A stretch of DNA of 64,000 bases from positions 558,001 to 622,000 of the forward strand of contig JAJXYY010000042.1 of the NCBI GenBank assembly GCA_021780315.1, written 5' to 3'. Of this stretch, positions 2,082 through 42,896 are shown piece by piece. How positions within the stretch are numbered: the stretch's first letter is position 1; each line of letters begins with the position of its first letter. The translations under genes and the position numbers were made by a program. This DNA comes from Acidobacteriota bacterium (GTDB taxonomy: Bacteria; Acidobacteriota; Terriglobia; Terriglobales; Acidobacteriaceae). The notes below the pieces were generated by a model. That model was not told where the DNA came from and did no database searches. It saw only the letters and a list, made by a program, of their open reading frames with translations.

Positions 2082-2259
2082 GGTGCTCCTCCTGCGGCTC
2101 GCTGCGGCAAACTGCACCAGCAGCGGAAAAAACCGAGTCTAGCACGCAGGTGTGCCATACGAGGTGCCAACGGCCACACGAGACGGCACCTGCATCACCA
2201 CAATCATGCACAACCGCCGTAGAATAATAAGATAAGCAACCTAAGGACGATATCTACGC

Positions 2260-3192
2260 ATGTACACGAGCACTCAGGCGATTTTGGCAGGACAGGTAGA
2301 GGCTGCGGCAAAGGCCGCCGGACTGGCAATACTTTCGAGCGAAGTGGGCGCGGACTTCTCGGGCAATCCGACGACACGTTTTACTCTGGCGCTGGCGGAC
2401 GACACCGCCCGGTCCACGGTACTGGAACTCAGCGACAAGTTTGACTTCAGCCACACTGACCTGCTGAGCGAAGTGCGGGTGTATCTGGCGGAGACCGCCA
2501 AACGGCTGAAGAATCCCAGGCCGGACTGCTACCTGACTCTGCACGGGATTCCGTTGAGCTTTGGCAAGTTTGCGTGGCCGTTCCACACCTCCACCTCCGG
2601 CGCGGACACGCTGCTGGTGCATGGAGAAGTTCGCTTGGAAGACGGGGAGGAGAGCATGCTGAACGCCAAGATCGCTGCCTCCATGACCCTGACGTTTGCC
2701 GAGATTGTTCAGGCACCCGAGCAGCCGTTTGCGGAAGGCTTTATCTACAACGCCGTGCGCAAGACGATGGATCAAGGTCAGTTGGAGCTGGTGAAGAGCG
2801 GCAATCGCCAGCCGGTGCCGGTGACCACGCGCTACTACAGCCGTTGGCAGAAGAAGTTCAGCTTCAACGACACGACCGAAGCACAGCGGATGGAGTATCT
2901 GGCGGCCAAAGTGTATTGGCTCTCCGGCGTTCTGGGTGGCGGGCAACCGGTGTGGTTGCTGGATCCTCGCGACGCCCAGTACCTGAATGCGACTGTCGCG
3001 GAGTTGAAGCATGCCGCGGAAGCTCTGGCCGGCGAAGGCATTATCCAACTGGCGAGCGACACGGAGTACGGTATCCCGACCGAGGCCCTGCTGGGGCATC
3101 GCGCCCGCTACGAAGTGGAGTTGGCTGAGGCACTTGCGTTTTTGAAGCCAACCTTCAATGAAGACATGCGTGGCGGCCATACCAACATGTAA
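2260..3192 (+). CDS. Hypothetical 310-residue protein, unrecognised family
   Basis: A soluble protein without signal peptide or membrane segment. AAGGA lies about 10 bases before ATG 2260. It is moderately acidic and mixes beta-rich segments (LTLHGIPLSFGKFAWPF, LLVHGEVRLEDGEE) with a C-terminal helical part (VAELKHAAEALAGEG). No catalytic motif is apparent to me. Codon use matches its neighbours, so it is a genuine gene. The preceding zinc-ribbon gene is divergent, and a small secreted protein gene follows at 78 bases on the same strand. It may be a lineage-restricted acidobacterial family. Confidence 0.7.
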   Translation: MYTSTQAILAGQVEAAAKAAGLAILSSEVGADFSGNPTTRFTLALADDTARSTVLELSDKFDFSHTDLLSEVRVYLAETAKRLKNPRPDCYLTLHGIPLSFGKFAWPFHTSTSGADTLLVHGEVRLEDGEESMLNAKIAASMTLTFAEIVQAPEQPFAEGFIYNAVRKTMDQGQLELVKSGNRQPVPVTTRYYSRWQKKFSFNDTTEAQRMEYLAAKVYWLSGVLGGGQPVWLLDPRDAQYLNATVAELKHAAEALAGEGIIQLASDTEYGIPTEALLGHRARYEVELAEALAFLKPTFNEDMRGGHTNM

Positions 3193-40872: not shown

Positions 40873-41796
40873 ATGGATGCAGTCTACCCCCTTGACGCCA
40901 CCGCCCCCGCAAGCGACGCACTCGTACGCGCACGTACCCACCTCGGAGACTACGAACTCACCATCTGCACCGATGGCATATACCGGCTCGACGGCGGTGC
41001 CATGTTCGGTGTCGTCCCCAAGACACTCTGGCAAAAACGCACCCCCGCCGACGACCAGAACTGCATCCTCCTGGGACTCAACACCGCCATCGTCCGCACC
41101 GGACACCACACCGTCCTCATCGAGACCGGCATCGGAAACAAGCAGTCCGCCAAGATGCGTGAGATCCACGGCAATCAGGAACTCCTCCCCACCTCGCTCG
41201 CCGCCGCCGGTATCCACCCCCAAGAGGTCGACATTGTCATCAATACCCACCTCCACTTCGACCACTGTGGCTGGAACACCACCCTCCACCCCGATGGCTC
41301 CGTCACCCCCACCTTCCCCAACGCCCGCTACTTCGCCCACGCCGGCGAGGTCGCCCACGGTCATCTCCAACTCGACCGCGACCGCATCAGCTATCTCTCC
41401 CCCAACTACGATCCGCTCATCCAATCCGGTCAGATGACCCTGCTCACCACCGAAGGCATTCGTGCCAACTCCGAGATCGTCCCCGGAATCTCTGTCGAAC
41501 TCTTCCCCGGCCACACCGCCCAACTCATGGGAGTCCACATCCAATCCACCACCCACGCCGGAACCCAGCGGCACGCCTGCTACATCTCCGACCTCATCCC
41601 CACCAGCGCCCACCTCGACCCCACCTGGGTCATGGGCTACGACCTCGACCCAATCACCTGCATCGCCCAGCGCAAACGCTTCTACCAGCGCGCCATCCCC
41701 GAAGACTGGCTGGTCCTCTTCACCCACGACCACCACAGCCCCATGGCCCACCTCGCCCTCAACGAAAAAGGCAAACCCATCGTCCGGCCAACCTGA
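40873..41796 (+). CDS. MBL-fold metallo-hydrolase
   Basis: A 307-residue metallo-beta-lactamase-fold hydrolase. The dinuclear metal motif HLHFDH at 126-131 is intact. Later His and Asp residues (HAGEVAHGH, FPGHTAQ, SDLIPT, FTHDHHS) complete the site. It belongs to the broad family that includes lactonases and quinone/phosphoesterases; substrate is not readable. No signal peptide is seen. It starts 54 bases after the zinc-ribbon gene and ends one base before the hepT remnant, tail to tail. Confidence 0.88.
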   Translation: MDAVYPLDATAPASDALVRARTHLGDYELTICTDGIYRLDGGAMFGVVPKTLWQKRTPADDQNCILLGLNTAIVRTGHHTVLIETGIGNKQSAKMREIHGNQELLPTSLAAAGIHPQEVDIVINTHLHFDHCGWNTTLHPDGSVTPTFPNARYFAHAGEVAHGHLQLDRDRISYLSPNYDPLIQSGQMTLLTTEGIRANSEIVPGISVELFPGHTAQLMGVHIQSTTHAGTQRHACYISDLIPTSAHLDPTWVMGYDLDPITCIAQRKRFYQRAIPEDWLVLFTHDHHSPMAHLALNEKGKPIVRPT

Positions 41797-41797
41797 A

Positions 41798-42169
41798 TCA
41801 ACCTGCCGAAGCACCACCCTCGCTAAGTCCAAGCTCCTGCTTCCACGCCAGCACCTCCGCCTTCAGCGGTTCCAGCATCGTCTCGACCACCCCCCACACC
41901 ACCACATCATCCACCTGCCCATAGCCATGGATCAGAAAGTTTCGGAAGTCCACGATCTTCCGCGTGTGGACAATCTTGTCCGCGGTTGCAGGAAAGTGCT
42001 TCGTCATCTGCGACAGCGCCTCGCCCACGACGCTGAACTTACGCTCCACCGCAGCCCGTAACATCGCATCCTGCTCGTACACTTGCAGCGTCTTGCCTCA
42101 GGTAAAGACTTCGATATCCGTGATCGCCCGCTCAATCTCCCACAGGTACAACTCCAGATTACGCGGCAT
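41798..42169 (-). pseudogene. hepT: HepT toxin gene disrupted by an in-frame TGA
   Basis: An ATG at 42169 overlaps the mntA stop by 11 bases and opens a 123-residue HepT reading frame. Codon 24 is TGA (minus strand, 42100-42098), so translation should stop after IEVFT. The frame then continues without error and carries the HepT signature RNFLIHGY (R-x4-H-x-Y), the tyrosine that MntA AMPylates. A single C-to-T change from CGA would explain it. A GTG at 42082 could restart a 94-residue N-terminally truncated form. HepT normally acts as an RNase toxin. The toxin is therefore probably inactive, unless the TGA is a sequencing error or is read through. Confidence 0.8.
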
Positions 42170-42467
42170 AAAGATTCACTTTCGTAGCCTCGATCTCCTT
42201 CAGGAAATAAGGGTTCCTGACGCTGCGCAAACTCACCAGATCGACCCTCCGGTCAAACAGTGACGCCAGGCTGCGCTGAAACGAAAAATAGTTCTCCGCA
42301 TACTCACCCGGAGACAGCGCCTCAAACTCCACGACCAGATCAATATCACTCTCACTGGGACTAAAGTCCTCTCGCAAGGCGGAGCCAAATAGCGCCAGAC
42401 CCAGCACATGATGCTGCCGGCACAAACCGGCTAGCTGCTGCCGCTTTATCGAGATCTCATCCACCAT
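42159..42467 (-). CDS. mntA: MntA-type minimal nucleotidyltransferase (antitoxin partner of HepT)
   Basis: A 102-residue nucleotidyltransferase. The polymerase-beta-like motif GSALREDFSPSESDIDLVVEF carries the GSxxR and the SDxD metal residues, complete here. MntA antitoxins AMPylate HepT on its conserved tyrosine to neutralise it. GAGG lies seven to eight bases before ATG 42467. The gene overlaps the disrupted hepT by 11 bases, which keeps the operon arrangement. The antitoxin is intact while the toxin is not, as expected during decay. Confidence 0.88.
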   Translation of the reverse strand: MVDEISIKRQQLAGLCRQHHVLGLALFGSALREDFSPSESDIDLVVEFEALSPGEYAENYFSFQRSLASLFDRRVDLVSLRSVRNPYFLKEIEATKVNLYAA

Positions 42468-42570: not shown

Positions 42571-42594
42571 GAAAAGCCCTGCCAAAGCAGGGCT
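42571..42594 (-). terminator. Intrinsic terminator of the rplU-rpmA operon
   Basis: An eight-base-pair stem, AGCCCTGC / GCAGGGCT with loop CAAA, is followed on the minus strand by TTTT. It lies 27 bases after the rpmA stop. Confidence 0.85.
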
Positions 42595-42620: not shown

Positions 42621-42896
42621 TTACGCAGGAACCGACATCACGTCCGCCGGGTCGACGTTCACAAAACGTCCATGCTGGCCACGATCCTGGAAGCGAACCA
42701 CGCCGCTGACGGTCGCAAACAAGGTGTCATCCTTGCCCCGGCCAACGTTCGCGCCTGGCTTCAGTGGTGTCCCACGCTGCCGCACGATGATGCCGCCGCC
42801 CAGAATCGCCTGGCCGCCAAACACCTTCACTCCCAGCCGTTGTGCATTTGAGTCGCGGCCGTTTTTAGAAGAACCTAAGCCTTTTTTATGTGCCAT
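42621..42896 (-). CDS. rpmA: Ribosomal protein bL27
   Basis: The product has 91 residues. It starts [20 protein letters not shown], the standard L27 N-terminus that reaches the peptidyl-transferase centre and needs no propeptide cleavage. [20 protein letters not shown] is also typical. The gene follows rplU by 55 bases, the universal rplU-rpmA arrangement, and is closed by the intrinsic terminator at 42571. Confidence 0.97.

What the first reader, a model, noticed from the sequence alone, without database searches (positions are those of the whole stretch)
41798..42467. MntA-HepT toxin-antitoxin pair with the toxin broken by one in-frame TGA
mntA is intact and overlaps hepT in the usual operon layout, yet hepT codon 24 is TGA while every following codon, including the RNFLIHGY active motif, is preserved. 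A CGA-to-TGA change is the simplest cause. It implies recent toxin loss or domestication of the antitoxin, a sequencing error, or readthrough.
Basis: partly seen in the sequence, partly recalled or inferred. Interest (0 to 1): 0.6.

Follow-up and report, generated by a model that had tools for sequence, protein, structure and literature searches.

The report
Toxin-antitoxin pair with recently broken toxin
A bacterial self-poisoning gene pair keeps its antidote gene but has lost its toxin gene to one stop codon, apparently the early stage of a loss that close relatives have taken further; it is a tidy but ordinary case of gene decay.

Summary
On the minus strand, mntA (42467-42159) is intact and overlaps the hepT frame (42169-41798) by 11 bases. 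hepT codon 24 (42100-42098) is an in-frame TGA; the rest of the frame, with R-N-F-L-I-H-G-Y, is preserved. It is the only PF01934 gene found in the genome. None of 41 related loci spanning this position has a stop there. hepT was the only clearly interrupted gene found when ORFs of five relatives were compared with the window (about 31 kb covered).

Best explanation: a young nonsense mutation that silenced the toxin of a HEPN/MNT pair. In the genus, 7 of 60 genomes with rpmA carry the pair directly behind it: 5 intact, this one, and a sister species with a frame break in each gene. In the other 53 it was not found there. All four members of this genome's immediate clade (support 0.966) have a broken or missing pair.

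A restart product (94 or 88 residues) would lack helix 1, which in solved relatives takes part in the dimer and in docking MntA. Readthrough, sequencing error and antitoxin domestication are not excluded. The ancestral codon cannot be inferred. One variant trait: this MntA branch mostly has GSX11DXD, not the published GSX10DXD.

The parts
42159..42467 (-). mntA: intact 102-aa minimal nucleotidyltransferase (antitoxin)
   Evidence: ORF; Pfam PF18765 41 bits and PF01909 40.4 bits, both over cut-off; 22 of 23 columns invariant among ten rpmA-linked relatives are kept
42339..42386 (-). MNT active-site motif, here GSX11DXD (GSALREDFSPSESDID)
   Evidence: translation; spacing counted
41798..42169 (-). 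hepT frame, 123 codons plus stop, interrupted at codon 24
   Evidence: translation; PF01934 64.8 bits with X at the stop
42098..42100 (-). premature in-frame TGA, hepT codon 24, directly after the predicted first helix
   Evidence: helix 1 = residues 5-23 in the model of the homologue of G007; 0 of 41 related loci have a stop here
42159..42169 (-). 11-base overlap of mntA end and hepT start
   Evidence: sequence; match coordinates give the same overlap in the rpmA-linked relatives
41921..41944 (-). RX4HXY motif (RNFLIHGY), codons 76-83, downstream of the stop
   Evidence: translation; E50, R76, H81 and Y83 invariant in the 28 relatives aligned
42080..42082 (-). possible restart GTG (hepT codon 30), would give 94 aa without helix 1
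   Evidence: ORF list
42062..42064 (-). possible restart ATG (hepT codon 36), would give 88 aa without helix 1
   Evidence: sequence, by eye
42621..42896 (-). rpmA (ribosomal protein L27), the upstream neighbour that marks the site
   Evidence: found in 60 of 62 genus genomes; gene name recalled from the sequence, not tested
42575..42594 (-). hairpin after rpmA, perhaps a terminator; similar hairpins follow rpmA in the empty sites printed
   Evidence: by eye; the pattern scan found no terminator-like site here
40873..41796 (+). metallo-beta-lactamase-fold-like gene, convergent neighbour on the other side
   Evidence: ORF; beside the pair in 4 of 7 genus carriers and within about 1.1 kb of rpmA in 23 of 53 genomes without the pair; gene name recalled, not tested

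Best explanation
This is a HEPN/MNT (MntA-HepT-type) toxin-antitoxin pair whose toxin was silenced by a recent nonsense mutation. In intact copies, HepT would act as a dimeric RNase through RX4HXY, and MntA would neutralise it by adding AMP to the motif's tyrosine (shown in other species, inferred here). Here translation of hepT ends after 23 residues, just past helix 1, so no RNase is made (inferred). MntA is left without a known partner; losing the toxin first costs little, because MntA alone was not toxic in the published case. The pair occupies a fixed place behind rpmA, and in this genome's clade it is being lost: stop in the toxin here, a frame break in both genes in a sister, no pair found in two more.
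For: Shown: the stop and the clean frame after it; the only PF01934 match in the genome, and no PF05168 HEPN as another partner; no stop at this place in 41 of 41 related loci. The order rpmA-mntA-hepT is found in 7 of 60 genus genomes and in 6 of the 8 genomes of a second genus matched. G040 has one frame break in each gene; G046 and G049 have no match to either protein anywhere in the genome; clade {G000, G040, G046, G049} has local support 0.966. Recency: 11 of 11 hepT columns invariant in ten linked relatives are kept, 8 of them after the stop. dN/dS against G007 is 0.11 before and 0.15 after the stop (near saturation). G000-only changes do not exceed G007-only changes in 6 of 7 relative-rate comparisons; the seventh is not significant. 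From passages of PMC7641770: RX4HXY RNase, AMP transfer by MntA, overexpressed MntA not toxic.
Against: No reads and no second strain of this species could be seen, so the stop rests on one assembly. The nearest intact relative is far (65% identity), so the dating is coarse and fits a sequencing error as well. Two possible restart codons lie 15 and 33 bases after the stop codon. Loss as the direction is inferred: pair alleles do not follow the host tree (hepT groups G000 with G007 at 0.94, mntA does not; G040's genes are most like G027's), so exchange at the site is likely too.
Confidence: 0.8

Rival explanations
1. Sequencing or consensus error: the living strain has an intact hepT.
For: A single codon in an otherwise intact frame; the assembly is a 47-contig draft; all hepT columns invariant in ten linked relatives are kept; no rate increase.
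Against: No other clearly interrupted gene among the ORFs compared, which covered 31,044 of 64,000 bases (short and lineage-specific genes were not tested). Independent damage to the same pair in a sister species makes real loss more likely beforehand.
Confidence: 0.1
2. A shorter HepT is made by restart at GTG codon 30 or ATG codon 36 and still works.
For: Start codons in frame, an AGGA stretch shortly before the ATG (by eye); the motif and all later invariant columns are kept; the part after the stop alone passes the Pfam cut-off.
Against: The product lacks helix 1 (residues 5-23 in the model of the G007 homologue). In the Legionella HEPN, helix 1 is part of the dimer interface and its R17 lies at the charged crevice; in another HEPN helix 1 docks MNT's last helix (passages of PMC11586414). 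40 of 41 relatives begin their match at residue 9 or earlier.
Confidence: 0.06
3. The TGA is read through, by near-cognate tRNA or as selenocysteine, giving a low level of full HepT.
For: The frame after the stop is preserved.
Against: None of 41 relatives has a stop or cysteine there. No tRNA-Sec over the gathering score, though this test is weak: the best match scores 46.2 against 47 (75 bases, next 45.5), and the search also rings in all 14 control genomes, over the cut-off in 5. The RNA around the stop folds no better than shuffles (z 0.88). hepT itself ends in TGA.
Confidence: 0.03
4. The antitoxin is being kept for a new job (domesticated AMP transferase) after loss of the toxin. This can hold together with the best explanation.
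For: mntA is intact and keeps all 16 columns that are invariant in 19 relatives. One genus member (G051) carries an intact mntA away from rpmA with no hepT beside it and no HepT match anywhere in its genome.
Against: Preservation is equally expected just after a recent toxin loss; in the sister species mntA is broken (G040) or not found (G046, G049).
Confidence: 0.08

Closest known systems
MntA-HepT of Shewanella oneidensis (SO_3165/SO_3166; PMC7641770, passages read; PDB 5yep, 6m6u)
   Same: PF01909 antitoxin next to PF01934 toxin, RX4HXY in the toxin; best fold match of the modelled G007 homologue (5yep_C, probability 1.00, TM 0.68, but E only 8.2e-3 and no match at E 0.001 or better); profile match to 6m6u and 5yep over the last 42 positions
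   Different: HepT here is shorter (113-123 against about 133 aa) and 16% identical in the fold match; MntA has GSX11DXD, not GSX10DXD; the toxin here carries a stop
HEPN-MNT of Aphanizomenon flos-aquae (PDB 7ae2 by PMC11586414; 7ae6, 7ae8 and 7ae9 taken to be the same series, recalled)
   Same: Fold match to the HEPN chains
   Different: 14-17% identity; longer HEPN chains
HEPN-MNT of Legionella pneumophila (PMC11586414, passages read)
   Same: RX4HXY toxin and AMP-transferring MNT
   Different: GSX10DXD, tetrameric HEPN; no stop in the toxin mentioned in the passages read
   Same: Same place behind rpmA, same overlap, same motifs; hepT 39-65% and mntA 48-59% identical to this copy
   Different: hepT open throughout; the convergent neighbour gene was seen beside the pair in G007 and G029 but not in G027, G059, G061

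Membership tests
HEPN/MNT toxin-antitoxin modules (PF01934 next to PF01909) | Adjacent genes of the two Pfam families | tested here: met
   Both over Pfam cut-offs, hepT frame scored with X at the stop
HEPN/MNT toxin-antitoxin modules (PF01934 next to PF01909) | A complete toxin gene | tested here: not met
   In-frame TGA at codon 24; so this copy is a relic of such a module, not a working member
Class I MntA-HepT as defined in PMC7641770 | RX4HXY in the toxin | tested here: met
   RNFLIHGY at 41944-41921, but downstream of the stop
Class I MntA-HepT as defined in PMC7641770 | GSX10DXD in the antitoxin | tested here: not met
   Spacing is 11 here and in 29 of the 33 loci among L003-L045 in which the pattern was found; 10 in L009, L014, L015, L034; 10 loci gave no match. 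The G, S, D, D residues are all present
NCBIfam type VII MntA (NF047752) and HepT (NF047751) equivalogs | Score over the curated cut-off of 60 bits | tested here: not met
   44 and 38.8 bits
Class I MntA-HepT as defined in PMC7641770 | HepT toxicity and its neutralisation by AMP transfer | not testable with these tools
   needs expression and biochemistry
PADLOC candidate PDC-S09 | Match to the profile | tested here: met
   mntA 103.9 bits to PDLC04905 over its whole length; hepT frame no match. What the candidate system requires was not looked up

The most novel reading that the evidence does not exclude
The pair is a resident of the ribosomal-protein site behind rpmA whose antitoxin, a GSX11DXD branch, outlives its toxin because MntA has taken on a second substrate; the stop here and the solitary mntA in G051 would be two independent cases of an AMP transferase freed from its toxin.
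Probability: 0.07. Interest if true: 0.6.

Novelty: new member of a known kind. Interest (0 to 1): 0.27.

Why it matters
Toxin-antitoxin theory (recalled) expects decay to begin in the toxin. This site, in one clade of four species, shows what look like successive stages side by side: toxin stopped, both genes broken, pair not found. That makes a small natural series for asking how such pairs die on chromosomes. The GSX11DXD spacing of this branch also suggests that a search with the published GSX10DXD pattern would miss these antitoxins. Otherwise it is ordinary gene decay.

Tried and rejected
Tried without result: a scan of genome contigs for close relatives gave 2 distant loci only; plasmids gave 2 weak matches; the promoter and terminator scan found nothing; a text search for GSX11DXD gave 0 papers. 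Paper searches on solitary antitoxins and decaying pairs showed no HepT case in their listings (15 of 22 listed; 4 of 4; 12 of 14); none of these papers was opened. Toxin-antitoxin with HEPN and Acidobacteria gave 2 papers, neither opened. Of the papers listed, passages of two were read (PMC7641770, PMC11586414).

Considered and rejected: a stop shared by relatives, or a normal downstream start; the TGA of G307 and the TAA of G236 as further broken toxins (the frames run open to their natural ends; the query P0001 carries an X for its own final stop, so such ends can be counted); window-wide poor sequence; selenocysteine (weak test). In one search one hepT match in an empty site (G017, 28% identity, E 0.03, inside the neighbour gene) was taken as chance. 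In one search, 16 of the 18 better frames are stop-free in the window; the other two, over L086 and L090 ORFs, had 5 stops and 1 stop, and two short ORFs at about 8.5-8.8 kb were not resolved further. iqtree did not run; FastTree was used instead.

Full report
What is there. On the minus strand, mntA (42467-42159, 102 aa) ends inside the start of hepT (42169-41798), with 11 shared bases. hepT codon 24 at 42100-42098 is TGA; the other 122 codons are open up to a natural TGA. Pfam matches mntA to nucleotidyltransferase families and the hepT frame to PF01934 across the stop (64.8 bits with X at the stop, 53.7 for the part after it). The genome has no other PF01934 match, no PF05168 match, and one other PF01909 match, a stretch inside an 896-aa open frame.

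Is the stop unusual. Of 43 related loci (L003-L045), 41 span position 24 and none has a stop there; the position carries 12 residue types, so it is not conserved and the original codon cannot be inferred. These loci include distant HepT-like genes and one piece of a broken copy (G040). One search gave 42 matches other than the own one at E 1e-10 or better; 13 of the 42 had no locus, and three of those 13 were looked at later (G068, G236, G313). Among them one further gene has a clear internal stop: a TAG in G068 at about residue 54, beside an antitoxin with an altered motif.

Is the assembly poor here. I compared ORFs of 90 aa or more from five relatives (G046, G040, G007, G005, G004) with the window: 124 query ORFs matched (38, 40, 4, 27 and 15), shadow frames included, and covered 31,044 of 64,000 bases. 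Twenty met a stop in the window. For 18 of them another frame of the same stretch matched the window with a higher score (16 of these better frames are stop-free); one is a longer upstream reading of purL; the last is hepT. Sequencing error is therefore possible but not suggested.

The site. rpmA was found in 60 of 62 genus genomes. In 7 of these 60, mntA-hepT lies directly behind rpmA: G000, G007, G027, G029, G040, G059, G061. In the other 53 no such pair was found in the stretch held, which reaches at least 780 bases behind rpmA, 1317 or more in all but one. On the far side, the same convergent metallo-beta-lactamase-like gene was seen beside the pair in 4 of the 7 carriers (G000, G007, G029, G040) and near rpmA in 23 of the 53 genomes without the pair; it was not found near the pair in G027, G059 and G061. 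In another genus (g64), 6 of the 8 genomes matched have the pair behind rpmA too: G230, G307, G313, G339, G362, G371 (the G339 and G371 proteins are identical); G329 and G343 do not within the stretch held.

The decay. In a tree of rplU, rpmA and, where present, the neighbour gene (65 genomes), G000 groups with G040, G049 and G046 (local support 0.966; order inside not resolved, 0.158). G000 has only the TGA. G040 has one frame break in each gene and otherwise readable frames. G046 and G049 have no match to either protein in the whole genome. The breaks of G000 and G040 differ, so they are independent. Loss is the simplest reading, but the pair's alleles do not follow the host tree: hepT joins G000 with G007 (0.94), mntA does not; G040's pieces are most like G027's (70-75% identity); and synonymous difference from G007 is higher in mntA (0.81) and hepT (0.67) than in the neighbours (0.52-0.55). 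Exchange at this site is likely as well.

How recent. All 11 hepT columns that are invariant in ten linked relatives are kept, 8 of them after the stop, including E50 and R76, H81, Y83. dN/dS is 0.11 before and 0.15 after the stop against G007, and 0.20 and 0.27 against G027; synonymous sites are near saturation and only 23 codons precede the stop, so this is weak evidence. In seven relative-rate comparisons G000 hepT had more lineage-specific changes than G007 only once (11 against 5, p 0.21), and fewer in six (one with p 0.039). All this fits a young stop or, equally, a sequencing error.

Mechanism. In the published cases HepT is an RNase with RX4HXY, MntA adds AMP to the tyrosine of that motif, and overexpressed MntA was not toxic (PMC7641770, passages including part of the abstract). 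I infer the same for the intact relatives here. A model of the G007 homologue (28 sequences, mean pLDDT 93.0) is closest to solved HepT chains (5yep_C, probability 1.00, TM 0.68, E 8.2e-3; no match at E 0.001 or better). By profile, 6m6u and 5yep match over the last 42 positions (E about 2e-5 to 3e-5). The first helix of the model is residues 5-23, so the TGA falls just behind it. A restart at codon 30 or 36 would lack this helix. In the Legionella HEPN, helix 1 belongs to the dimer interface, and in another HEPN it docks MNT's last helix (PMC11586414, passages). So I expect no working toxin.

Membership. By Pfam and gene order this is a HEPN/MNT module. By the strict published pattern it is not a Class I MntA: the spacing is GSX11DXD. 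Among L003-L045 the pattern was found in 33 loci, 29 with 11 and 4 with 10 (L009, L014, L015, L034); 10 loci gave none. Both proteins fall below the NCBIfam cut-offs (44 and 38.8 against 60 bits). I therefore say that its intact relatives probably work like MntA-HepT, and that this copy is a broken member of a side branch.

Verdict. The finding is ordinary decay made a little more interesting by the series of stages at one site.

Noticed in passing
42339-42386 and relatives' loci: The MntA branch here has GSX11DXD in 29 of 33 loci where the pattern was found (L003-L045), not the published GSX10DXD; a search by the published pattern would miss it.
   Followed up: partly
L149 (G051), about 2084-2389, minus strand: Intact mntA-like gene with no hepT found beside it, away from rpmA, in a genome with no HepT match: a possible solitary antitoxin.
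   Followed up: partly
L142 (G068), about 986-1306: Another HepT-like frame with an internal TAG at about residue 54, beside an antitoxin with an altered motif.
   Followed up: partly
L092 (G040), about 1800-2600: Both genes of the pair carry one frame break each in a sister species.
   Followed up: yes
42159-42467: mntA matches PADLOC candidate PDC-S09 over its whole length (103.9 bits).
   Followed up: no
41798-42467 and relatives: hepT and mntA trees disagree on the nearest relative of this copy, which suggests partner or allele exchange at the site.
   Followed up: partly
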